From: Leptolyngbya sp. BC1307 | GTDB lineage: Bacteria > Cyanobacteriota > Cyanobacteriia > Phormidesmidales > Phormidesmidaceae | NCBI RefSeq assembly: GCF_002286735.1 | Contig: NZ_NRTA01000039.1 | Coordinates: 1 to 38,349, forward strand | Reading direction: 5' to 3' | Length of the DNA: 38,349 nucleotides | Shown: one piece after another, positions 25,655-38,349 of the stretch | How positions within the stretch are numbered: the stretch's first letter is position 1 | Layout: every line of letters begins with the position of its first letter | Program-made: the position numbers and the translations under genes | Notes under the pieces: model-generated | Databases searched by the model: none | Told to the model about the DNA's origin: nothing | The model's input: only the letters and a program-made list of their open reading frames with translations

Positions 25655-26824
25655 TCATTCAAGCAATTTGCGAATCGCTCGGGTTTCAGCGATCAGGATT
25701 TGCGCTGCTGCTTCAATCTCTTCATCAGTTGTGAATTTGCCAAGGCCAATCCGTAAGGCTCCTTCGATGACCTCTTCCTTCAGCCTCATTGCCGTTAGTA
25801 CGTGAGATGGAGTCTCGACGCCTGAAGAACAGGCCGATCCGGTAGAGATAGCGAGGTAGTGACGAACTCTGGCAATAATGGCGCTGTTTGGTATGTCGGG
25901 AGCAGATATGTGCAAATTTCCAGCTAAGCGATTTTGAGTGTCTCCGTTGATGATGAGTCCGGGAATATTTGCGAGTAGTTTAGATTGGAGCCTGTCTCGT
26001 TTGGCTGCGATCGCCCGTTCATCTTCGACCATCTCAATTTGACGTAGACGGCAAGCCTCTCCTAACCCAACAATACCGGGAACATTTAGGGTTCCTGGTC
26101 GTAATGCTTTTTGCTGACCGCCGCCATATAGGATAGGAGCAAGCTGATAGCCTTTTCGTACGACTAACGCACCAATTCCTTTTGGGCCATAGAATTTGTG
26201 GGCGGAAAGTGCCAGCATGGTAATTCCCCAGGCTCGAAAGCGGATGGGTATTTTGCCGACGGCTTGGGTGGCATCGCAGAGGAAGGGGACGTTGTGGTTT
26301 TGTGCGATCGCGCTGATTTTTTCAATAGGGTAAATAGTTCCCACTTCATTATTAGCAGCCATCACGCAAAGGAGATGAATGCCGCTAGCACAAACCTGCT
26401 CTAGCTCTAGCAGATCGACATGAGCCTGGTTATCGACTGGTAAAACGGTAAGCTTAATCTGTCCTTGAGATTTGAGGGCATAGCAGGTATCTAAGACGGC
26501 TTTATGTTCAATGACAGAGATAGCTATATGAGGAGTGACGCCCGATTTTTGGGCATGCTTGACAGTGCCTTGAATTGCGATATTAATGCTTTCAGTTGTA
26601 CCAGAGGTAAAGGTGACTTCTCTCGGCGCTGCTTGAATTAGCTCAGAGACATAGTAAGCCGACTGCTTTACCGCAGATTCGGCGCAATCTCCAGCTTCAT
26701 GCTCAACGCTGCTAGCGTTACCGAAGGTAGTGATCATCGCCTGAAAAACTGCGTTCGCGACTCTAGTATCAACCGGAGTTGTCGAATGGTAATCGAGGTA
26801 AATAAGCTCTCTAGAGATAGCCAC
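25655..26824 (-). CDS. Cysteine desulfurase, IscS/NifS/DndA-like
   Basis: A 389-residue PLP enzyme that would take sulfur from cysteine and hold it as a persulfide. The features are complete: YLDYHSTTPVD at the N-terminus, FTSGTTESINIAI, EHKAV (His107), AANNEVGTIYPI, DATQAVGKIP, the PLP lysine in LSAHKFYGPKGIG (Lys210), and the catalytic loop STGSACSSG with Cys332. It begins at GTG 26824, sharing a base with the TAG stop of the BrxL-like gene (TAGTG), so it is translationally coupled to the BREX-like genes. That setting suggests sulfur delivery for DNA modification, as DndA does in phosphorothioation, rather than iron-sulfur assembly. This role is inferred. Confidence 0.9.
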   Translation of the reverse strand: MAISRELIYLDYHSTTPVDTRVANAVFQAMITTFGNASSVEHEAGDCAESAVKQSAYYVSELIQAAPREVTFTSGTTESINIAIQGTVKHAQKSGVTPHIAISVIEHKAVLDTCYALKSQGQIKLTVLPVDNQAHVDLLELEQVCASGIHLLCVMAANNEVGTIYPIEKISAIAQNHNVPFLCDATQAVGKIPIRFRAWGITMLALSAHKFYGPKGIGALVVRKGYQLAPILYGGGQQKALRPGTLNVPGIVGLGEACRLRQIEMVEDERAIAAKRDRLQSKLLANIPGLIINGDTQNRLAGNLHISAPDIPNSAIIARVRHYLAISTGSACSSGVETPSHVLTAMRLKEEVIEGALRIGLGKFTTDEEIEAAAQILIAETRAIRKLLE

Positions 26825-28272
26825 TAAACTGCTTCCACCAAAATCTCTCGACCGAGCTGCTTATATTCATCATCTAAATAGTATTCGGAATCGCGAATGA
26901 ACTGACGAATCTTACAAGCCGGTCTTAAACAATCATTTTCGTAGTCCATTAGGGTTAGCTCTAAATGGGGATAGAGAATTTTAAGGAAACCAGATGATGT
27001 CTTAAGAATGGCATTTTGATCGCGAATGGTAGCCGTTTCGCCAAATTTTGTATGATTCTGTGCATAGGCAGCGTATCGATTGTCTCGGCGTAGTCCGAGG
27101 AGAGCTTCTCCAAAAAAGTCCATTTTAAGACCTACCTGAGACGCAGCCATGTTTCTAGTAAACTTGGGAATTTCCCAACCAGGAATAATACCTGCGAAGC
27201 GATCCAGAAAAGCCGTTTCGCCAAAGAATTCGGGTAGGTCAGTGATGAGGTTATATGAGTTTTTAGGCTGAAGGTTAGCGTCTAATTCGATGTTTGCAAG
27301 CATCATTAGAGAGCAGTCGCTGCTGATGTCGGCAAAGCCAGCTCTATTGTAACGACCGCTAGCTAAGTAACTCTTGAGCGGCCCAATAATCTCGTCTGGA
27401 TCTTCAAAGGTGAGGCTTTGTACTTCATCTAAAACAACAACATCATGTCGGCCTAACAACCCAATTTCTTTATTTCTACCGTTTATAAACAGTTGAGAAG
27501 GCGTGACTTTACCACCGCTAACCACAACTACTTTACTGCTAATATTCTCAAATACGTAACTCTTACCTGTGCCCTTAGGGGCTAATTCCATAGCGTGATA
27601 GTTGGGCTCAACTAATGGCAGTAGACGAGCTAATATCCAGGTTTTAGCATCCTGTGTGTAGCTAGAGTGCTCGGGGTTGTAGCCCATGGAGCAAAACATC
27701 AAATCGCGCCATGCGTGAGCATTAAATTGGGCACGATAGTTAGCATAGGCATCAAAATCTATATTGGAGCACTGGAAAGGATCAAAATCGATGACTTCTG
27801 GCGTACCATCAGGAAGCATTCCTAGTGATATTTTTCCCCATACTCCTTGTCGCAGAAGCATTTCGTGACGTTCTATTAAGTCAGTTGAGATGGCGCAGTT
27901 ATTCATGTTGAGTACAGGAATTTGCGCTAATGGATCAGGAATAACGCCTTTCCCTTGCTCCAGTTTAACTCGTACCTGTAGTAGGGCAATGAGCTTGTGT
28001 ATATCGCCCTGAGTGAGCTTAAATTTGATGATGTTTGCATCGTCTTTTCGTGGAAATGCCTTGCTGACGAAGGTGCTAACCTTCTCTAATTCTGCTTGTG
28101 TCAAGGCACCGCTACCGGGAACAATTTTGTCTAGCAGCCATTCTGCTACGAAGCTAGGAACGCCAGCCCCTGTCAGTCCGCTAGAAGGTAAACGAGTTTT
28201 ATCTATTCCTAAGTCGCCGAAGATATCTCGAACGAGATCGCTGTTGTAGTTTGTTGAATTAGAAGAAGTCAT
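26824..28272 (-). CDS. brxL: BrxL-like AAA+ ATPase, short form without Lon protease domain
   Basis: A 482-residue protein matching the N-terminal and AAA+ parts of BrxL. The Walker A is PKGTGKSYVF (GTGKS 234-238), Walker B VVVLDE (278-283), sensor 1 MLANIELD (324-331) and an Arg-finger region FLDRFAGIIPGW (355-366). Upstream, IERHEMLLRQGVWGKISLG and GYNPEHSSYTQDAKTWILAR (parts) are family-typical. BrxL of type 1 BREX is about 680 residues with a C-terminal Lon-like domain; here the protein stops about 115 residues after the ATPase core. BrxL forms DNA-binding ring assemblies in the known systems. ATG 28272 overlaps the preceding stop by 14 bases. Confidence 0.85.
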   Translation of the reverse strand: MTSSNSTNYNSDLVRDIFGDLGIDKTRLPSSGLTGAGVPSFVAEWLLDKIVPGSGALTQAELEKVSTFVSKAFPRKDDANIIKFKLTQGDIHKLIALLQVRVKLEQGKGVIPDPLAQIPVLNMNNCAISTDLIERHEMLLRQGVWGKISLGMLPDGTPEVIDFDPFQCSNIDFDAYANYRAQFNAHAWRDLMFCSMGYNPEHSSYTQDAKTWILARLLPLVEPNYHAMELAPKGTGKSYVFENISSKVVVVSGGKVTPSQLFINGRNKEIGLLGRHDVVVLDEVQSLTFEDPDEIIGPLKSYLASGRYNRAGFADISSDCSLMMLANIELDANLQPKNSYNLITDLPEFFGETAFLDRFAGIIPGWEIPKFTRNMAASQVGLKMDFFGEALLGLRRDNRYAAYAQNHTKFGETATIRDQNAILKTSSGFLKILYPHLELTLMDYENDCLRPACKIRQFIRDSEYYLDDEYKQLGREILVEAV

Positions 28273-31200
28273 CTAGTCCCTCCTGCATTCCACTGCTGAA
28301 TAGTTGGTTGACCTCAATCGTTGACTCTCTATCTAGATCAGAAGACGAAAATTCAGCATCCTTATAGTAAAACTCCAGTCTGCCGGTGAGTGTGAGTGTT
28401 TTACCCTCATGAGCAGGTGGTAGTTCTGGCCACTCAGGAATTTCTACGTCAATAGTTTGACACGCCTTTTGACTGATGGATACACCCAGGACTTGGCCTT
28501 CCTGCAATGAAGCTAGCTGTTCTATGTATAGCTTACAGTTTTCTATAGGAAGCGCGTTAGAATTATTGACTTCCACTGTTAACAGATGAGATTCTCCAGG
28601 TTTTCCTGAACCAAAACACTTGACGAGAACAGGAGAGCGCTTGACGGATCGTTTCAGTACTGAGAATCCTACAACAACTTCCTCAGGATACAAGCCACCG
28701 TGACAGCCAATGACGCTCTTGTCGTCGGCATAGCTGAACGAATTGAAGCTTCCAGAGCCTCGAACAACGCTGATATCGTGAGGGAGGTCAAAGCGATCCT
28801 TATCGAGTACAGCTAACTGCGGGTCGTCAGTTCGGCCAATGGCCATACGGCCTTTTGGCGTCAGCTCTTTGGATATGAAGGGAAGTTTTGTAGAGGTTCC
28901 CATTAGCTGACCGTGGTCACTAGCAATGACAACTCTCATTTCTTCATGCTGAGGGTGCATTTTTAAGAATCTTAGAATATCGTCGGCGATTCCTTTGATA
29001 GCTCGCTTTCTCTTGACAGCATATAGCTCCTGCCAATCGACTTCCTTGTGAAAGAGGCTATCAAATTCATCGGTATCCCAACAGTAAATACGGTATTTAT
29101 TTTCTTTGAGATCTGCTTGCAATCTACTTTTCGTAACGTCGTTATCTGTATATCTTCTTCCAATAGATTCTTGAAAGCCTTCTCCTGCGTTAGGTTTCCA
29201 GTCTTTATGACTAGGCAGCTGCTGGCTGTACAAGCTCCACTTAGCATACTCGGTTTTAGTAGGCAAAATGCTGAACCGAGGCTGCAACATTTGTTCAAGC
29301 TGAAGCTGTTGGGCATCTGTCAAATTTTCTAAAAGCGTTTGATGATCTAGCCAGCCGAGCCCATCGACAACTACCCATAAGACTGGCCCTTCTTTGCAAA
29401 GTTCATGGACATGGTGGCTGACGTTGTAGTTTAGAAAGGAAGAAGGTACAGAGTCTACTTTCATTTTTGGGTAGTTCTCAAGCATCCAGTCTTCAAAGCT
29501 TGCTGCTAGATGATCGCAAATCTGCTGTTCCTGAGGAAGATTAGATATAACCGTTTCCCACTTTCTAAAGGGTAAGTAAGCGTCTGTAGCCCAAGCCAAT
29601 GCCTCAGTTGGAGAGGCTTCAATAGCCAAAGCAGAGGGCTCGAGCGGACGATGGCGCTGATTTAGCGATCTGTATTGCTCTGGGCTGATATATTGACGCA
29701 GCTTTTGTTCTCGGGCCTTAGTGATGTAGTTTGGGTGCTGCTGTAGTATTTCGTAAGCCTTCTTCGCAATGCGTTTGGGAGCCGGTTGCTCCTCCCAATC
29801 TACACTGTCTAGCAGCCGCGCTTCATTACGGTATAGCTCTCTTTCCCAATAGGCATCGAACTCTGATTGGAAGCGGTCGGGTACTTCAAGTGGATAGGTA
29901 CCTAAATCTGGTAGATATGGCTCAGTAATTTTTAGCCACTGCTTGAGTAGATGAGGTTTATCATCAGTTTGGTAGTAGTGCTCTAGACTTACGCTATTTC
30001 GTCTTGATTGCCATGCTTGCTCTAGCACTTTAGCGTCTGTAGGGACTTCAATAGAAAGCCACTTCGCTAGATTTTGGACAGAAGGGGATTCTGTCCAAAT
30101 TTGTAGTTCGCTATCCGTGATTGCAGATAGTAAGTGAGCGATCGCATCTTGGCCATGCTTTTTTCCGTACTTTTCTAGCCGAACAACGACAGCTAGATAT
30201 TGTTTTTCGCTCCAATCAGACGGTACTTGAATAGGTTGCAAAAAAATTGCTAGTCGCTCTTTAGGAGAAGATTTTATATCAGCAATTAGCTGACTTCGAT
30301 TCCAACATATCAGCCATTCTTCCGCCCAGTCGCAGAGTTCTTTGCCCCTTACCCAGTAGGGGGCGCTATCACTGATGCCGAAGCTTCGCATCCAGGCGAC
30401 TTCGGTTTCAATTGTGACGTAGCCATCCGGAACTGGATATGCTTTCGACGGATCGAGAACGATGGGTTGTTCTGGGCTTGGAGATGCCTGCTGGCTGCTA
30501 GGCAATAGCGTAAATAAGGAAAATGCTGCCTGCTTTGGCACTTGACTTTGTAAGGGGGCCTCGGCTGCAATTGGCACAGGAGAGCGAAAGGGCTTGATGC
30601 TGATGACTGGAGAAGGAATCGCAGGTGCTGGTTCAGCGGGCTGCTTTATGGCTATGTCTTCAGAAACTTTATTTTCAGAATTTTCCTGTCGCGTCTCTAC
30701 GTTTCTCAAGGAAGTTAGTTCTATTTCTGGGTTATCTTGCTCTACTTCTTGTATTTCTAGTGGCTTCAGTGAACTTTCTTCTGAACTGGGGCTGCGTTTC
30801 AGATTTTTAATGCTACTGAGTGCGTCTAGCAGCTCTTGAGCAGATTGGAAGCGGTCTGTGCGGTTTGATGCGATCGCCCGCTGCAAAAGCAGTGATAAGT
30901 CTTCGCCTATGTCCTCACATCCCTCAACATGGCTAGGGTCAAAACATTCTTGCCCTACTACTGGCTGAGCTGCATTGAAAGGATACCTGCCTGTTATGCA
31001 CTCATAGGCGGTAATTCCAAGGGCGTACAGGTCTCGGTCTATACGGTCTTCTTTTGAGGGTTCAATAGAAGGCTTAAAACCAGGTGGCAGGTATCGGCGA
31101 GTTCCTGCTGTAATGGCAGATTCATCGGATGAAGTGACCGACACATTGAAATCAATGATCTTTATGCCTTGATTAGTCAACAATAGATTAGACGGCTTGA

Positions 31201-33040
31201 TGTCTTGATGGTAGATATTCGCTTGGTGTAGATAGGATATTCCTTTAGCCGTTTGCTCTAAGACTTTTACAGATTCTTCTAGGGATAAGTCTCTTGATGC
31301 TAGAACTTCTTCTAAATCCTTGCCTTCAAGATATTCAAACAGAATAAAAGGTGTGTCGTCGTACTCGCGAAGCTGACCAGACCACCGAACTTTGACAATA
31401 TGAGGATGAGGGTCTTGTAGAACTCTATACAGAGCCGCAAATTCTTGTTGAGCGCGCTCAAATAAGGAATATTTATCACGAACGACTATCTTGATAACTT
31501 GGAAATCTTCGCTGAAAGAGTCGAACACTTTATAAGCAACAGCGAAACTACCCGGTTTACCTAATCGTTCAACAACTGAGTATCTGTTGTCTAAAACTGT
31601 GTCTGGTGAAAGGCTTGCTAAGTCTGGAATGCTTTTTGAGAAAGGAGCTAGCCTGTCTAACGCTGCTTGAGCACTAACGAAGCGATCGCTACGGTCAAAG
31701 GCACAGAGTTTTTGCAACCACTTGTCGAAACCGTTTGGTAAGTCATGATACTGTTGTGAGGGCAGCGCCGGAAGCACTCCATCGCTTGCATACATCTCTT
31801 CGAAGCTCTTGAAAGCAGGCTCTCCCATCAGCAGCTCGTAGAAAACCTGTCCAGCAGAAAATAGGTCTGATTTTTCACAAGCACTAGCAGGGCTGTTTTG
31901 ACAGTCGAAATCTTGATAAATCGAGGAGGCTTCTAAATCGTCGCCGATGGCATTAGCGATTGTTCCCGTTCTATTTTCGATGCGAGCGTAGTCAAACCCT
32001 GTCAGCTTTGCCTGTTTTTCTGGGGTAACAAAAATATTATCTGGAATGATATTACGATGAATGACACCGTGCTTGTGCGCATGATCTAGGCCGCGTAGAA
32101 CGTCTGCAATGACGTTGCGTTTCTGTTCCAGCGTCAAATGATTGATTCTGATTAACTGACGAAGCGGCTGTCCTTGAATATCTTCTGTGACGAGAACTAA
32201 ACTATCTGCCTCAGCGCTCTCGAAGATGTCTTGGACTTTTACTATGTTGTCGTGACTAGGTAGGTCGTCAACTGCTTGAAAAGCGGTGCTGATCAATCGG
32301 TATGCTTCTTCTCTTTCAGTCGCGTCGATCCAGGGCTCGACACCGTAAGCCTTCAACCTAGCTCTACGATTCTGCAATCCAAGCGTGACTTTCTTCGCCA
32401 AATACTCAACATACTTATCTTCTTTTTCTCCTAGCTCCTCAATCACCTCCCACGAGCCAAACCTTTTTTTGTGGTTTCTAGGCTTCGCACGTCCTCTAAT
32501 TGCACGATCAATTGCGTTGACATGAGATGCGATCTTAGTCTCAAAGCGATTGCTGTCGATACTTTGCCAGTCTTTAAAGTACCTGATACTAGGTTCTCCA
32601 AGGCGAATGATATCGTCTTTTTCAAGTCCATCAGTGCTGACATCAATGACTTCTACATTTTCAGTTGTCAATAGCACAGTACCCTGTACTAGAACTCTCT
32701 GAAGAAGCCTTCTACGGATGGGATCAGTATCTACAATGAGTCCGTTCAAAACCCTAGCGTGTTGGCGGTACTTTTTTAGCGGCGAAGGATAAGATTGTCT
32801 ATTTTGTGGATACCACTCATTACGATCAACCTCAACCCTGCCGTATACCCCTTTTACATCGACTATGTAAACAGCATGAGGTGCTACTAAGATGATGTCT
32901 ACTTCGTACAGCCGTCCGTTGCGAGGAATTTCTAAATTGGTATAAAGCCTGTAGTCGTCAGGCAGATGCTTACGAAGATACTGGGCGGCTATGCGTTCGG
33001 ATTCGTTTTCGGGTTCGCCGAACTGAATTAATTCTGCCAT
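28259..33040 (-). CDS. NERD-pseudokinase-kinase-PglZ fusion protein (PglW-like + PglZ)
   Basis: A 1593-residue continuous frame with four parts. Residues 10-160: NERD nuclease-related domain (RLYEVDIILVAPHAVYIVDVKG). Residues 195-465: protein-kinase fold with lost catalytic residues, HRNIIPDN (328-335) for HRDxKPxN and GFD (348-350) for DFG. Residues 485-745: Ser/Thr kinase with Lys517, HQDIKPSN (611-618), and DFN (630-632), probably active. Residues 745-860: Pro/Ser/Glu-rich linker. Residues 860-1593: PglZ, alkaline-phosphatase-like fold, with LWVVVDGLGW (Asp1226), IASDHG (Asp1375, His1376), and GCHGG (His1447). PglW (NERD-kinase) and PglZ are normally separate proteins of type 2 BREX/Pgl. 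ATG 33040 overlaps the upstream stop by one base (TAATG). Confidence 0.9.
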   Translation of the reverse strand: MAELIQFGEPENESERIAAQYLRKHLPDDYRLYTNLEIPRNGRLYEVDIILVAPHAVYIVDVKGVYGRVEVDRNEWYPQNRQSYPSPLKKYRQHARVLNGLIVDTDPIRRRLLQRVLVQGTVLLTTENVEVIDVSTDGLEKDDIIRLGEPSIRYFKDWQSIDSNRFETKIASHVNAIDRAIRGRAKPRNHKKRFGSWEVIEELGEKEDKYVEYLAKKVTLGLQNRRARLKAYGVEPWIDATEREEAYRLISTAFQAVDDLPSHDNIVKVQDIFESAEADSLVLVTEDIQGQPLRQLIRINHLTLEQKRNVIADVLRGLDHAHKHGVIHRNIIPDNIFVTPEKQAKLTGFDYARIENRTGTIANAIGDDLEASSIYQDFDCQNSPASACEKSDLFSAGQVFYELLMGEPAFKSFEEMYASDGVLPALPSQQYHDLPNGFDKWLQKLCAFDRSDRFVSAQAALDRLAPFSKSIPDLASLSPDTVLDNRYSVVERLGKPGSFAVAYKVFDSFSEDFQVIKIVVRDKYSLFERAQQEFAALYRVLQDPHPHIVKVRWSGQLREYDDTPFILFEYLEGKDLEEVLASRDLSLEESVKVLEQTAKGISYLHQANIYHQDIKPSNLLLTNQGIKIIDFNVSVTSSDESAITAGTRRYLPPGFKPSIEPSKEDRIDRDLYALGITAYECITGRYPFNAAQPVVGQECFDPSHVEGCEDIGEDLSLLLQRAIASNRTDRFQSAQELLDALSSIKNLKRSPSSEESSLKPLEIQEVEQDNPEIELTSLRNVETRQENSENKVSEDIAIKQPAEPAPAIPSPVISIKPFRSPVPIAAEAPLQSQVPKQAAFSLFTLLPSSQQASPSPEQPIVLDPSKAYPVPDGYVTIETEVAWMRSFGISDSAPYWVRGKELCDWAEEWLICWNRSQLIADIKSSPKERLAIFLQPIQVPSDWSEKQYLAVVVRLEKYGKKHGQDAIAHLLSAITDSELQIWTESPSVQNLAKWLSIEVPTDAKVLEQAWQSRRNSVSLEHYYQTDDKPHLLKQWLKITEPYLPDLGTYPLEVPDRFQSEFDAYWERELYRNEARLLDSVDWEEQPAPKRIAKKAYEILQQHPNYITKAREQKLRQYISPEQYRSLNQRHRPLEPSALAIEASPTEALAWATDAYLPFRKWETVISNLPQEQQICDHLAASFEDWMLENYPKMKVDSVPSSFLNYNVSHHVHELCKEGPVLWVVVDGLGWLDHQTLLENLTDAQQLQLEQMLQPRFSILPTKTEYAKWSLYSQQLPSHKDWKPNAGEGFQESIGRRYTDNDVTKSRLQADLKENKYRIYCWDTDEFDSLFHKEVDWQELYAVKRKRAIKGIADDILRFLKMHPQHEEMRVVIASDHGQLMGTSTKLPFISKELTPKGRMAIGRTDDPQLAVLDKDRFDLPHDISVVRGSGSFNSFSYADDKSVIGCHGGLYPEEVVVGFSVLKRSVKRSPVLVKCFGSGKPGESHLLTVEVNNSNALPIENCKLYIEQLASLQEGQVLGVSISQKACQTIDVEIPEWPELPPAHEGKTLTLTGRLEFYYKDAEFSSSDLDRESTIEVNQLFSSGMQEGLDDFF

Positions 33041-36000
33041 TAGAACACCTCCGTCGTATTTTCTAAGTACGCAGATAGCCTCTGGTATAGCTCGATTCGC
33101 TCTTCTTTAGGTAGCTCCTGAAAGAGCGTTTCGATTTTGCTGGCTCGGTTTTGATTTTGAACTAGCTGACACGCTTTTACGGCTTCTCCTAGAGCATCTT
33201 TCTGCGTGTCTTCGAGGAAGTCTTCATACTTAACGCGCGCAGAGCTGATTTTTTTGAGAGTAGCGCCTGCTTTTTCGAGCTTCTCGGGAAGTGTAGATAC
33301 GGCACCTAGCCGAGAAATTTCGTCTTGCAGCCCAGTTAGCCACTTCTGGGCTGCATTGCGCTGCCTGGTTTCAATGGTTTGCTGAGTTTTTAACAGGCTT
33401 TGCTCTATCGATTGAAGGCGCTGCTCTACAGTTTTAGAAAGGATCTCTTGGTCTGCTTTCCAGTCGTCAAGTCGTTTAATTTCGGACTGGCAGGCTTCAA
33501 TGCTATCTACTTTCTGTGTATCAGCTATTGTAAGCAGTTCAGTGAGTTGGCTTACGTCTGCGCGCACAGCATCGTAGACATTGGTATATTCAGAGCCCTG
33601 ATATCGTTTTGCGCCGCTGGCAACTTTAGCTTGGACTTTACGAGCCGCACTTAAGTTAGAAAGGTAGCCTAAGTCCTGTTCCCACTGGGTCAGTTCTTCG
33701 ATAAACTGCTTTTGCCTTTGGTGCAAGAACTCTGCTGATTCACTTAGCCTCGTTCTAAATCTGTCTAAGTCTTGGAGGTTGGTTTGAATCTCATCAATGG
33801 TCATCAGGACTTGTTGAATACCGGAAATAGAGTCCGCATTAGCTACTTCTACTTCTAATGTAGATACCTTCTCTAAGTCACTCGACAGTGTTTGAAGCTG
33901 ATCTTCAAGGGTTTTGTATCGCGGATATTCGGTGGAGTCTTTGAAGACAAAATCTAGTTTGGATAGGTCGTTTCGGAGCTGCTGGAGCTTACTATCTGTC
34001 TCGATAGATTGGAGCTGAACTTCGAGGTCGTCAAGGCTAAAGGTGTATTCTGCTCGTTTGCCTTTGAAAGCTGTGATGAGTCGCTCTGTCGTGTCAGCAT
34101 GGTTCTCTGGGAAGTTTAGCTGCGATCGCAGTTCTTCTATCTGCCCAACAATCTCTTCACAGCGCAGAATGGTATTCCCCATACCTGCCCTAAACTGCTG
34201 AACCTCTTTGATAGTTGCGCGATCTTCGTTGTTCCTTTGCAAATTGGAATATCTATTTTCTAAGGTTTGCCGTGCAGCTTGTAGATTATCCTGTTCGCTG
34301 GCAAGCTCTAGCTGTTCTGTGACTAGCCGCTGTGCTCGCAAGATGTAGGCTTTGAGATGTTCGTATTCTTCAGTACGTTTGATTTCGTGATCGCAGTCCT
34401 GATAAAGCTGCTCTAGCTTTTGCCGAATCGCTTTTTCACCTTCTGCCTGATATTTTTGTAGCTGCTGCTGATAGCTTTCGGCATTGGCCGCATTAGCTTT
34501 GTCTGGAAGCGTTAGCTGTGAAAGCTCCATATATGCCTGAACAACGTCATTAAAGTTGTTCAAGGAAATGACTGACTCTAGCTTTTGACGCGACTTTTGA
34601 ACGACATCAGCTAACGCTGTTTCGATATTGCGCTTAGCATCCTGCTGCAAAATTCTGGCCTGTATACGGCCAACAAGCGAGTCTACCTGCTGTTTATTGG
34701 TTTCACTATCAAAGCGATTACGCTCGCGGTTGACCTGTTCGCTGAGTCGGAGTGCTTCGTCGGCAGCCTTGATAGCAGCGAACTGGTCTTCCCAAGCATC
34801 AATTTTGCGGATGAGTGCGTCTTGCTTACCTTCAATATCAGCGACTATCTCCAGATAAACAGGCTCTTGCTGAACTTGGGGTATGGTAGTGGCAAGGGTC
34901 ACAATTCTGGCAAGCACATCGCTGTACTGACTTTGGGTAGCGTTGCCTGTGAGCGATTGATGCAGTCGCTGAATTTGATCTATGAGGCTACGCTTTTGCG
35001 CAAGCTGCTGAAGATTGGCTGTCTGTTGTGCGGCGCTTTCGAGGGCGGTTCGTAGCTCATTCGCGAATCTGTCAGGCAGCTCGGGAACTGCTAAGAGCCT
35101 TTCTAGTTGATATTCGATATCGTTGATTAAACGCTGCCCCTGTTCGGTCGTTTCAAAGCTCTGGGCTTGCTTTGAAAGATCTTCTACTAGCCCTTCTATT
35201 CTATCTTTGAGCAGTTGTCTGGTTCGCCTCCAATTAACCGACTGATCCTCAGACACGCGGACTGTCGTCACGCCTTCTATGATCGTGATAGCAGGCGGTG
35301 TATTTTCAAGGGGTGCGTAGTAGCTAGCGAGTACGTCCAACGGAGCTTGCTGCTCTAGCTGCTGCTGAGCTTCTATAGTGGGCTGATTCCAAGTATCAAT
35401 ATCTTCAATGCCCTGCTGAATTTGTCGCTGTTTTTTCTCCAAAAAGGCGACTTTAGAAGCTTCTAACGTTCCAGACTGAATATGGCCAGAAATCCTCTCA
35501 AGTAGCGAACCTGCCTCGACATAGCTTGCTGAGTCAGGAACACTAATGTCCAAAGGCTTACGCCGTACGATCTGGTTTTTGCCTCTCAGAACCCATACGC
35601 TAACAAAGTCTTTCGCTTTTTCAAGAATATTTGTCTGCTGTGCCCACTCATGAAGGGGTGCCGTTTTATTAGTAACTGTTTCTTTCCTATTTCTAGGAAT
35701 ACCAAAGGCTCCCGACAACTCTACTTCAGAGCGATGAAAAGCAAGCCAAGCTGCTAACAGTATTGTAAATGTCAGTTCGTTATAGCCATACGGGGCTTCA
35801 CTTAACACCTTCCATATTTTGCTGACTTCTACGTTCTTCTGTGCTTTATCCCCAATGTCGGTCATTTCGGAGATGATGTCCCAAGCTTGCCGTACGTTTG
35901 GCTCTTGGGGTACTGTCACCGTATAGGGCATTCCGGCCTTCAACAATTTCCAGCTTCTGATAAAGACAAGATCGATGACGCTCTTATACGACTGGTTAGG

Positions 36001-37644
36001 AAACGACGCCTCTTTTAGATCGTTTGCCAATAGTTGTCGCGAAGTAAAGCTGATAATCCCAGATCCGGCTGTACTTTTTATCCGAAGTTTGTCGATACTT
36101 TCGACAGGAGGAATGTACGTGTACAGCTCATTGAGCATTTTGCTAACGCTAGACTCAATGCGTTTTATCTCGGCTCTCGGAATTTTGTCAATGACACGAC
36201 AGGTATAGGTGCAGCTATCGAAGATCTGCTGTAGCTCAGAGTCTAACTGTTCTTCAAATTGCTTGTTGAGTTCCGTTAGGGCAGCGCCAAATTCCTGCTT
36301 CTCTCGTGAGCTTTTGGAACTAAGCGCTTCTTTCATTACTAAAACTTTGGCAAGGTCGCGGGTGCCTCGGTTGGGCAATGCGATGATGATTCGTTCTTTA
36401 ACAAATTGAGGCGCTTTTGCTAGAATCAGTTCAGCTTCTTTCTCCAATGCCTCAAGATCTTGGTCGTATTCTCCTATGAAGTAGGCAATCAATCCTGCTT
36501 CTGCTCTTTTTACGTACCGCTCGCTAGAGAGTACTCTCTCAAACTGGTCTATAGTAAAAATCTCTTTACCAAATAGCCAATCGGCTCCGTTGACCCGGCG
36601 TTCGGTCGCAAATCGGTCAGCTCTAACGGTATCGCTACCTAGGTAGCGAGTGAGATTTTTACGGCAGTGTTCCAGTAAGTTTTTGAAGTCTGACACTTTG
36701 TTCTTTGTGTCTTCTTCAATTTTTCGCTTGAGGTCGGCAATATTAAATCCTGTGAAGAAGCGGTAGGTGTTTGTGCCCGCACTGAAATAAACAACTTGGT
36801 ACTCTTGAGAAAGTTTTTCTAGGAGTTCTCTTGTTTTAGCGGGCGAGAAGCCGGTCATAACGGAGAGAATATCGTCGTGGCGTTCGCGTTCGGGTTTGGA
36901 GATCTTTTCGCCGCATAGATAGTATAGGGCGATCGCCTTAAGCATGTTGATTTCGTCTGCACTGGCAAAGGCCGCAATAGACTCATAGGCTTTTTCGTAT
37001 TCGGTGTACTTTGACTGTAAGGAGAAGTTTCCGGCAAAGGCGTCCATGAGCTGAACGGGCCTGACGAACTGTAGCTCTCCATTTTCTTCAACAGGCTGTT
37101 TCTCAATGAACTGAGTAACGTCTTCTTTGATGAATTGAATGGCAGTCCTACCCTGCGTAAACTCCAGGTTGCAGAGCAGGTAGCTAGTGAGGGGATGGAG
37201 CGGATAACAGCCTAGTCCTAAATGCTTGTGGAAGTCTTCTACGGGCCAGTTGCGGTTGCTGTAGGCCGTGATGTATTGATCGTAGGAATTTCGAGATTCG
37301 CGCCATAGGGTATCGCCCCATTTGCTACGAAAGGTTTCCCATTGGGCATTGTCGGATTCTTTGATTAGGTTGTCGATCACTAGCTCTAGGCTAGCGCGTG
37401 GTTCATAGGTGCTAGGGGCTAGTTCAATGCGGGTTGTGAATCGCTCGTAGTGTTTGCGCTCTAGATAGGGGATTTGAGTATCTATAGAGGGTCTGATCTG
37501 GGCTAGACACAAGAGGGCTATTTTACCACGGTTTCTTTCGCAGACGTTGGTAATGTTTTGGAGGGCAGCGCCACCGGCAGATTTTGAATTTTTAAGCCAC
37601 GCTCTAAGGGGACGGTTCAAACTCGGGTCACACTTTAAGCGCAA
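33040..37644 (-). pseudogene. BrxC/PglY-like ATPase, N-terminus lost to an insertion
   Basis: A 1534-codon open frame of the BrxC/PglY class. Recognisable are the post-Walker-B strand IALLCLAQI (42-50), YERFTTRIELA (66-76), GLGCYPLHPLTSYLL (143-157, the PLHP motif) and a very long coiled-coil, Gln/Glu-rich C-terminal half (about residue 780 onward). No Walker A is present: the frame begins at a TTG right after a stop codon beside the transposase gene, and the family N-terminus of some 200-300 residues is missing. The native part seems to begin near 37600 (RAWLKNSKSAGG). The rest may lie beyond the insertion, outside the window. The stop is TAATG-coupled to the PglZ fusion. Confidence 0.82.
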
Positions 37645-37657
37645 TCAGGTAGTCTAA

Positions 37658-38254
37658 ATGACTGCCCCTTTCCCCAGAACACTCCCCATGAGTCCAGCCG
37701 TTTCTGTCGCTGCCAACCTATCCCCTGCTGCTCGTCAAGAAATCGGTATCGAGGCAATCGCCCGCACACTCCCTATCACTCACTTGGCAGACAGGCATCA
37801 AGTCAGCCGGAAGTTCGTCTACCAGCAAGGCAATAAGGCACAGCAAGCGCTGGATGAGTCGTTCGCACCATCACAAGGAGATGACGATATACTGTTTTAT
37901 CTGCCAGTGACTAAGAACTGGCTGTTCCAGCTGATTCTAGGTCTAGTCTTGATCTGCCACAGCTCGTATCGCGGTGTGGTGGAACTATTGCGCGATCTAT
38001 TCGATACGCCCGTTAGCGTCGGCACCGTTCACAATCGGCTTCAGGAAAGCGCTGAAAAAGCAGCTGAGATCAATCAATCACAAGACCTTACTGACATTAC
38101 GGTGGGTCTTCAGGACGAAATTTACCAAGCCAATAAACCCGTTTTGGTGGGCGTTGATGCGGCCTCGACGTACTGCTACTTATTGAAATCGGTGGGGTAC
38201 CAACTTAAGCCGGGAAAAGCTATGCGTGCAGGGGCTTGGGCTGATGTGCTTTAG
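37658..38254 (+). pseudogene. Transposase N-terminal fragment (first insertion sequence)
   Basis: A 198-residue frame. The N-terminal part is helix-turn-helix-like (LPITHLADRHQVSRKFVYQQ), then LFQLILGLVLICHSSYRGVVELLRDLFD, seen in parts, and QANKPVLVGVDAASTYCYLL, in which the Asp of GVDAAST is probably the first catalytic DDE residue of this cyanobacterial transposase type. The frame stops at 38254 long before a complete catalytic domain, and the last residues (AMRAGAWADVL) look foreign. The gene is therefore truncated, probably by the second element annotated from 38220. ATG 37688 is an alternative start. Confidence 0.75.
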
Positions 38255-38348
38255 CTGCCTTTCTGGGCAAAGGCAGCTCAGTATGATGGCTGAGTACCCA
38301 CTCAAATAGGTCAGGAAACTGATGGCCAAATAAGCGTTGAGCAGCGGT
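38220..38348 (-). CDS. Transposase C-terminal fragment (second insertion sequence, open at right edge)
   Basis: On the minus strand a frame enters from the window edge and ends at TAG 38220-38222. It reads QRLFGHQFPDLFEWVLSHH then ELPLPRKAAKAHQ, which resembles the C-terminal tail of a DDE transposase (FPDLFEWVL...LPLPRK). It overlaps the end of the plus-strand transposase remnant in antisense. Only 42 residues are visible, so the family cannot be named. Confidence 0.5.
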   Translation of the reverse strand, partial: TAAQRLFGHQFPDLFEWVLSHHTELPLPRKAAKAHQPKPLHA

Positions 38349-38349
38349 G

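What the first reader, a model, noticed from the sequence alone, without database searches (positions are those of the whole stretch)
28259..33040. A single protein joins a PglW-like NERD-kinase half to a full PglZ
Seen: one uninterrupted 1593-codon frame contains NERD, two kinase-fold domains, a Pro/Ser-rich linker and a complete-looking PglZ (about 840 residues with the linker). Known: in type 2 BREX/Pgl, PglW (NERD plus kinase) and PglZ are separate genes. Inference: fusion would fix a 1:1 ratio and could allow the kinase to act directly on, or be reversed by, the phosphatase-fold domain. I do not know of a described BREX type with this architecture.
Basis: partly seen in the sequence, partly recalled or inferred. 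Interest (0 to 1): 0.88.

Follow-up and report, generated by a model that had tools for sequence, protein, structure and literature searches.

The report
MAD6-type kinase fused to PglZ
One cyanobacterial defence protein joins a nuclease-plus-kinase unit known from other phage-defence systems to the BREX protein PglZ, and relatives in two families keep the same fusion, although the copy in this genome sits in a damaged operon.

Summary
The fusion is real, but on the minus strand: one 1593-codon frame (ATG 33040, stop 28259) encodes NERD, pseudokinase, kinase, a Pro/Ser/Glu-rich linker and full-length PglZ. Of 22 genomes with a related PglZ, 7 carry the fusion (two families), 3 of them as one complete frame; it is rare (2 of 386 genomes in an even phylum sample). 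'PglW-like' needs correcting: the N-terminal half passes NCBIfam's MAD6 cut-off (646 bits, cut-off 460) and fails PglW's (192, cut-off 990); a true PglW lies elsewhere in this genome. The intact operon of G389 puts the fusion between BrxC-like and BrxL genes, beside sspB-sspC-sspD: phosphorothioation-linked and type-4-BREX-like. I read it as a portable NERD-kinase unit grafted onto PglZ, adding a kinase trigger and a second nuclease. Three other loci keep only PglZ's ends, once behind the NERD-kinase half, which suggests that the ends dock and the middle is exchangeable. In this genome brxC lacks ~272 residues at a repeat and no sspC or clear sspD was found, so this copy is probably crippled. 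Eight literature searches, and the text I read, gave no description of this architecture. No mechanism was tested.

The parts
28259..33040 (-). fused NERD - pseudokinase - kinase - linker - PglZ protein, 1593 aa; its start overlaps the stop of the BrxC-like gene and its end overlaps the start of brxL
   Evidence: junctions read
32672..33007 (-). NERD nuclease-related domain (residues 12-123); E-[VI]-D ... D-[VI]-K motif kept in 6 of 6 fused sequences compared
31631..32470 (-). pseudokinase (residues 191-470); HRN (5) or HRH (1) in place of HRD and FDY in place of DFG in 6 fused sequences
30833..31582 (-). protein kinase, likely active (residues 487-736); Lys, catalytic-loop Asp (HQD) and DFN Asp kept in 6 of 6 fused sequences
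30461..30790 (-). Pro/Ser/Glu-rich linker (residues 751-860), the least constrained segment (dN/dS 0.44 between G389 and G387)
28259..30460 (-). full-length PglZ half (residues 861-1593) with VVVDGLGWLD, PTKTEYAKW, SDHGQ and CHGGLYPEE motifs
30263..30460 (-). N-terminal ~66 residues of PglZ, the segment kept in mini-PglZ proteins of other genomes (proposed docking element)
28904..29383 (-). Pfam PglZ domain match (residues 1220-1379), under the curated cut-off
28310..28627 (-). C-terminal beta-sandwich (residues 1472-1577), the best-modelled part of a poor AlphaFold model (pLDDT of blocks mostly 75-90)
26824..28272 (-). BrxL, full length (BrxL ATPase domain 347.4 bits; TIGR02688 441.6 bits, cut-off 329.3)
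25655..26824 (-). cysteine desulfurase of the DndA/SspA/NifS kind
33040..37644 (-). BrxC-like gene lacking its first ~272 residues (homology to the Pseudanabaena BrxC-like protein starts at its residue 273, at base 37608), so without the P-loop seen in relatives
37658..38349 (+). repeat element at the contig end (198-aa frame without a Pfam match; similar copies on other contigs); I read it as an insertion sequence

Best explanation
A NERD-pseudokinase-kinase unit of the MAD6/SspF kind was grafted onto the N-terminus of PglZ in a phosphorothioation-linked, type-4-like BREX system of cyanobacteria. Shown by sequence: the layout, its recurrence in two families, the kept catalytic residues, purifying selection on the domains and the order BrxC-like, (NERD-kinase-)PglZ, BrxL. 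Inferred: host DNA is marked by SspABCD-type phosphorothioation; a complex of the DUF4007 protein, the BrxC-like protein and BrxL recognises unmarked DNA; the ends of PglZ dock into that complex; the kinase, scaffolded by the pseudokinase, switches the complex, perhaps by phosphorylating itself or its neighbours; and NERD plus the PglZ nuclease then damage the DNA, NERD being a second or back-up effector. In the window's own genome the operon is probably no longer functional.
For: Fusion in 7 of 22 genomes with a related PglZ (layouts). NERD, kinase and PglZ motifs kept. dN/dS 0.05-0.20 for NERD, both kinases and PglZ between G389 and G387; 0.03-0.15 between the window and L025, which ends after PglZ residue 150. 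The same N-terminal unit heads SspF/MAD6-like proteins in G170 and G004 and a MAD6-type protein on a Piscinibacter plasmid. The G389 operon carries SspB, SspC and SspD homologues upstream; SspC is in 6 of 7 fusion genomes against 54 of 386 in the phylum sample, 33 of those at 40% identity or more. Mini-PglZ proteins keep the ends of PglZ. Published, passages read: in type I BREX the PglZ N-terminal domain binds BrxB and PglZ is a nuclease (PMC12205998); PglW kinase activity is needed for Pgl (PMC4365076); SspFGH damages DNA without phosphorothioation (PMC8092258).
Against: No activity was tested. The PglZ half fails the BREX-4 PglZ model (21.4 bits, cut-off 140); the BrxC-like proteins reach BrxC or SspC models weakly or not at all, so 'type 4 BREX' is loose. 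SspC was not found in the window's genome or in 11 of 25 PglZ-bearing genomes or records (the window's genome is one of them), and several of the 14 matches are partial or broken; only in G389, G387 and G116 does SspC lie beside the fusion. Only 3 of 7 fusions have one complete frame. The PglZ tree needs two changes of the fused state and none of 200 bootstrap trees shows one origin.
Confidence: 0.55

Rival explanations
1. The kinase's main job is to control PglZ in cis: it phosphorylates the linker or the PglZ half and so switches the nuclease; NERD is secondary.
For: Fusion brings kinase and PglZ together in one chain; the linker is rich in Ser, Pro and Glu; two charge isoforms of PglZ and an essential PglW kinase are reported for Pgl (PMC4365076, passages).
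Against: In G116 the NERD-kinase half is kept while the PglZ catalytic core is missing (split over two contigs, so less certain), and the linker is the least conserved segment.
Confidence: 0.2
2. NERD-kinase is an abortive-infection back-up that attacks the cell's own DNA or proteins only when the main PglZ/BrxL restriction fails, as proposed for PglW and DndF co-effectors by Rakesh and colleagues.
For: The same authors propose this for the same unit in PglW and in some DndF proteins (PMC12839542, PMC10853773, passages); 15 of 22 genomes with a related PglZ showed no fusion, so it is an optional add-on.
Against: Nothing here separates self-attack from attack on phage DNA; strong constraint on NERD and kinase fits either.
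Confidence: 0.2
3. The fusion is a dead end in this strain: a decayed operon that happens to keep an open frame.
For: brxC truncated at a repeat element; no brxC N-terminus, SspC or clear SspD found in the genome.
Against: This concerns one strain, not the architecture: a full-length operon exists in G389. The fused frame here is intact and constrained against L025 up to PglZ residue 150 (dN/dS 0.03-0.15), though that may predate the damage.
Confidence: 0.05

Closest known systems
MAD6 of the methylation-associated defence system (NF047741), and SspF/DndF proteins with an N-terminal NERD-kinase unit
   Same: Residues 1-609 pass the MAD6 cut-off (646 bits, cut-off 460); same order NERD - pseudokinase - kinase; closest sequences outside the fusions in my searches are an SspF/MAD6-like protein of G170 and one on a Piscinibacter plasmid.
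   Different: In G170 and G004 the unit continues into an SspF-like part, and in G170 the next gene matches mad7, followed by a large gene that was not scanned; here the unit continues into PglZ and sits between brxC-like and brxL genes.
Type 4 (phosphorothioation) BREX
   Same: BrxL, PglZ, a BrxC/SspC-like protein, DUF4007, a PAPS-reductase-like protein and often a cysteine desulfurase, as listed in PMC12839542 section 34 (read).
   Different: PglZ fails the BREX-4 model; in Pseudanabaena and G389 DUF4007 and SspD are separate genes, with two DUF4007 genes and both an SspC (1190-1200 aa) and a BrxC-like protein of 1803-1841 aa; PglZ carries NERD-kinase, where the paper reports an inactive STAND domain in 292 of 457 taxa.
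PglW of type 2 BREX/Pgl
   Same: NERD - pseudokinase - kinase order; weak similarity (192 bits).
   Different: Far below the PglW cut-off; PglW continues into winged-helix and inactive STAND domains (PMC12839542, passages), not PglZ; the genome has its own PglW at C33.
PorX and type I PglZ
   Same: Same PglZ core; type I PglZ also ends in a beta-barrel or beta-sandwich (PMC12205998, PMC12839542), as modelled here for residues 1472-1577.
   Different: PorX is a response regulator, and type I PglZ is a separate gene without kinase.

Membership tests
PglZ | full-length match to a PglZ profile | tested here: met
   PADLOC PDLC02549 residues 13-685 of 733, E 4e-22; Pfam PF08665 just under cut-off, 22.3 and 24.0 against 25
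PglZ | metal-site motifs of the PglZ core conserved | tested here: met
   D366-G367, T401, T403-E404, S514-D-H-G517 and H587-G-G589 (numbering of the 733-aa half) invariant in 12 of 12 rows of A1; the first part is aligned to PorX, the SDHG and HGG parts only in a second stretch below threshold
BREX-4 PglZ (NF033445) | score over the curated cut-off | tested here: not met
   21.4 bits, cut-off 140
PglW (NF033442) | score over the curated cut-off, which needs the C-terminal half too | tested here: not met
   191.9 bits, cut-off 990; positive control in the same genome 1649.8
MAD6 kinase (NF047741) | score over the curated cut-off | tested here: met
   646.3 bits, cut-off 460; G389 657.5, G550 643.8
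MADS or SspFGH/DndFGH system | mad7/mad8- or SspG/SspH-like partner genes beside the kinase gene | tested here: not met
   PADLOC scan of the window's neighbours gives BrxL and DndA/SspA and nothing for the BrxC-like gene; in G389, G387 and G550 the neighbours are brxC-like and brxL
Type 4 BREX | BrxL | tested here: met
Type 4 BREX | BrxC ATPase | tested here: inconclusive
   relatives of 1532-1841 aa carry a YGKGKS P-loop but reach BrxC or SspC models weakly (G389: SspC 55.4 bits, BREX_BrxC_wHTH 23.5 against 27) or not at all (Pseudanabaena); truncated in the window
Type 4 BREX | PAPS reductase and DUF4007 | tested here: not met
   no PAPS reductase in the window; the genome's two PAPS-reductase genes are only 22-25% identical to the Pseudanabaena SspD, and no SspC was found; DUF4007 was not searched in the genome. 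Both are present in the operons of G389, G387, G207 and Pseudanabaena
Type 4 BREX | phosphorothioate in the DNA and restriction of unmodified phage | not testable with these tools
   needs mass spectrometry and phage assays

The most novel reading that the evidence does not exclude
In these cyanobacterial operons PglZ is a swappable effector carrier. Its N-terminal ~66 residues and its C-terminal tail dock into the BrxC/BrxL complex, while the middle can be the PglZ nuclease, can shrink to a short linker, or can be replaced or reinforced by a MAD6-type NERD-kinase unit. The BrxC-PglZ-BrxL module would then be one of the missing restriction partners of SspBCD, most copies of which had no known partner when counted (2,211 of 2,678, PMC8092258, passage).
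Probability: 0.35. Interest if true: 0.78.

Novelty: new variant of a known kind. Interest (0 to 1): 0.6.

Why it matters
The NERD-pseudokinase-kinase unit is already reported at the head of PglW and some DndF proteins; finding it on PglZ adds another carrier and argues that it is a portable part of modification-based defence. Because it is joined to PglZ in one chain, and because natural versions exist without the kinase (15 of 22 genomes) and, it seems, without the PglZ core (G116), the open questions of what the Pgl/BREX kinase does and what PglZ is for become testable by comparing natural variants in one laboratory host.

Tried and rejected
Rejected: 'the N-terminal half is PglW'; 'assembly or single-strain artefact' (G389, G550, L025); 'type 2 BREX operon' (neighbours). 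A script scan for GxxxxGK[ST] found no P-loop in the BrxC-like proteins and suggested a dead ATPase; the alignment then showed YGKGKS with another residue at the first Gly, so that idea was dropped.

Led nowhere: AlphaFold of the PglZ half with three sequences gave mean pLDDT 46.5, so no fold search was run; viral contigs gave no relatives; searching plasmids with the PglZ N-terminal segment found the two known cyanobacterial loci and one chance-level hit, so the segment was not found on other effectors. The number of fusion origins is open: the cassette tree puts the six fused rows on one side of a 100/99 branch from three MAD6-type rows (one of these, Nonomuraea, is short, and the PglW row is very long), but the PglZ tree needs two changes of the fused label and 0% of 200 bootstrap trees show one (one fused row covers only 27% of the columns, one was joined from two frames). 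Not inspected beyond the ~1.5 kb flanks: G446, G544, G554, G555, G573, G574; the weak hit G604 was not followed. In G002 no BrxC match was found in the stretch fetched. The searches for the brxC N-terminus and SspC in the own genome came up empty; SspC has positives with the same tool elsewhere, the brxC N-terminus had no positive control.
Full report
What is there. The frame at 28259-33040 is real but lies on the minus strand. It starts with ATG at 33040 and encodes 1593 residues. Its start overlaps the stop of the upstream BrxC-like gene and its end overlaps the start of brxL, whose stop overlaps the start of a cysteine desulfurase gene (coordinates, junctions), so the four genes look like one translationally coupled operon.

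Domains. Pfam: NERD 12-123 (66.5 bits), two protein-kinase stretches, PglZ 1220-1379 just under cut-off. The C-terminal 733 residues match a PADLOC PglZ model over residues 13-685 (PDLC02549, E 4e-22); 11 of 12 aligned sequences, window included, match Pfam PglZ at E 0.01 or better. A profile of these 12 finds PorX-type response regulators of solved structure at E 4e-7. In six fused sequences the NERD E-[VI]-D...D-[VI]-K motif is kept in 6 of 6; the first kinase has HRN (5) or HRH (1) for HRD and FDY for DFG, so it is a pseudokinase; the second keeps Lys, the catalytic-loop Asp and the DFN Asp in 6 of 6.

Which kinase family. The N-terminal half passes NCBIfam's MAD6 cut-off (646.3 bits, cut-off 460; residues 1-609) and fails PglW's (191.9, cut-off 990). 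The control is in the same genome: C33 encodes a protein scoring 1649.8 on the PglW model and 253.4 on MAD6. The closest sequences outside the fusions in my searches are an SspF/MAD6-like protein of G170, in the window's own family (37% over the NERD-pseudokinase part), and one on a Piscinibacter plasmid (38%). In G170 the next gene matches mad7 (471.5 bits); the genes following the Piscinibacter one are annotated hypothetical and were not scanned.

How widespread. PglZ-half searches hit 8 of 386 genomes across the phylum, 4 of 63 in the window's order, 14 of 243 in the order of G116 and 4 of 13 in the family of G550; the sets overlap, and together 22 different genomes were hit, one of them (G604) weakly. 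Four plasmid records matched, two of them close and cyanobacterial, and three loci in genome contigs. The fusion is in 7 of the 22: window, G389, G387 and G440 (by its match coordinates the same contig as L025, Phormidesmis sp. RL_2_1) in the window's family, and G550, G459 (second locus) and G116 in family f22. In the even phylum sample of 386 that is 2 (window and G116). Only 3 of 7 have one complete frame (window, G389, G550). G387 is frameshifted within PglZ; G440 runs in one frame from the second kinase into PglZ and ends at the contig edge, with frame breaks further upstream in a contig of 1.7-fold coverage; G459's copy is truncated in PglZ; G116's is split over two contig ends and lacks the PglZ core. 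In the non-fused loci with a long PglZ the frame upstream of it is open for at most 58 residues. Of these, nine were inspected more widely and have a BrxC-like match upstream (G382, G245, G207, G478, G459 first locus, two Nostoc, Pseudanabaena, and Annamia in pieces); G002 has none in the stretch fetched. G478's PglZ carries a 46-residue extension resembling the end of the linker, so loss of a kinase half there is possible.

Selection and history. Between G389 and G387 dN/dS is 0.08 (NERD), 0.05 (pseudokinase), 0.12 (kinase), 0.44 (linker), 0.20 (PglZ N-terminal part) and 0.09 (PglZ core and C-terminus). Between window and L025 it is 0.05 (NERD, 152 codons), 0.03 (part of the pseudokinase, 160 codons) and 0.15 (kinase to PglZ residue 150, linker included). 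Window against G389 is saturated at synonymous sites, so the window's own PglZ core has no usable estimate. The trees do not settle the number of origins (see Tried and rejected).

Setting. In Pseudanabaena plasmid pPg_05 the order is DUF4007 (SspB) - SspC - [three small genes] - SspD - Uma2 - DUF4007 - 142-aa protein - BrxC-like (1803 aa) - PglZ - BrxL - cysteine desulfurase (names). G389 has matches in the same order with the fusion in the place of PglZ, and a ~390-codon frame on the other strand between brxL and the desulfurase, as also in G387. SspC was found in 14 of 25 PglZ-bearing genomes or records, several of them partial or broken, and in 6 of 7 fusion genomes: beside the fusion in G389, G387 and G116, beside the stand-alone system in G459, on another contig in G550, and as a contig-edge fragment in G440 (positions). 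In the phylum sample it was found in 54 of 386, 33 of them at 40% identity or more by my count of the listed rows. The other 11 of 25, the window's genome among them, gave no match. So the module is phosphorothioation-linked in many genomes but not in all.

The copy in this window. The contig is exactly the window. The BrxC-like gene begins at the equivalent of residue 273 of a full-length relative, next to an element with similar copies on other contigs, and so lacks the P-loop seen in relatives. The genome (99.99% complete) gave no match for the brxC N-terminus or SspC, and its two PAPS-reductase genes are only 22-25% identical to the Pseudanabaena SspD. I conclude that this copy is probably not functional, although the fused frame itself is intact.

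Mini-PglZ. In three loci the gene before BrxL keeps only the N-terminal segment of PglZ and its C-terminal tail. L041 (G328) has 215 residues and also a C-terminal part; L090 (G484) has 130 residues with a Pro-rich linker; in L040 (G116) it follows the kinase in frame, with an acidic repeat linker. The frames in L041 and L090 are complete; that of G116 starts at a contig end with a stop codon in low-complexity sequence, so it is less certain. Pfam finds nothing in L041 and L090. Against a functional reading: in G352 and in G459's second locus PglZ is truncated without the tail and BrxL is broken or not found, so plain decay also occurs. [quoted passage not shown] I propose, as inference, that the two ends of PglZ are docking elements and the middle is exchangeable.

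Mechanism. Best reading, 0.55: a portable NERD-kinase unit adds a kinase trigger and a second nuclease to the PglZ effector of a phosphorothioation-linked system. The steps from recognition of unmarked DNA to phosphorylation to DNA damage are inferred; none was tested.

Literature. I ran 8 searches. PMC12839542: abstract, sections 18 and 34, the first of four parts of the references, and found passages. PMC10853773, PMC4365076, PMC12205998 and PMC8092258: found passages only. Nothing that I read describes a NERD-kinase-PglZ fusion; supplements, which may list architectures, could not be read, and the type 4 BREX experimental paper (PMC12914056) is not held. So novelty in print is likely but not proven.

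Noticed in passing
L041:1601-2248 (G328), L090:2286-2678 (G484), L040:9-701 (G116): Mini-PglZ: the N-terminal segment (for example YWVRGKRLCDWTTEWLRVW in L090) and the C-terminal tail are kept before BrxL; the catalytic core is gone in all three, with different linkers.
   Followed up: partly
L013:2895-7103 (own genome, C33): A canonical PglW (1649.8 bits), one gene away from a large frame that reads like a DNA methyltransferase (not scanned): probably a separate type 2 BREX-like locus in the same genome.
   Followed up: partly
L026:294-13968, L032 and L033: Two DUF4007 genes and two SspC/BrxC-like proteins (1190-1200 and 1803-1841 aa) in one operon, plus a conserved ~140-aa protein with no Pfam match (and none in PADLOC for the Pseudanabaena copy).
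   Followed up: partly
L092:299-19901 (G004): DUF4007, SspC and PAPS-reductase homologues, two further genes, then a 1430-aa NERD-pseudokinase-kinase-SspF protein, two more large genes and a desulfurase: looks like an SspFGH-type system with the same N-terminal unit.
   Followed up: partly
L094:11418-11555 (G478): A PglZ without kinase but with a 46-residue N-terminal extension resembling the linker end of the fusions, possibly a trace of a lost kinase half.
   Followed up: no
window:37658-38349: Repeat element at the contig end; its last ~155 bases are 99-100% identical to four other places in the genome.
   Followed up: partly
L032:5712-6884 and L034:18001-19170: A ~390-codon frame on the opposite strand between brxL and the cysteine desulfurase in G389 and G387, absent in the window; not identified.
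   Followed up: no
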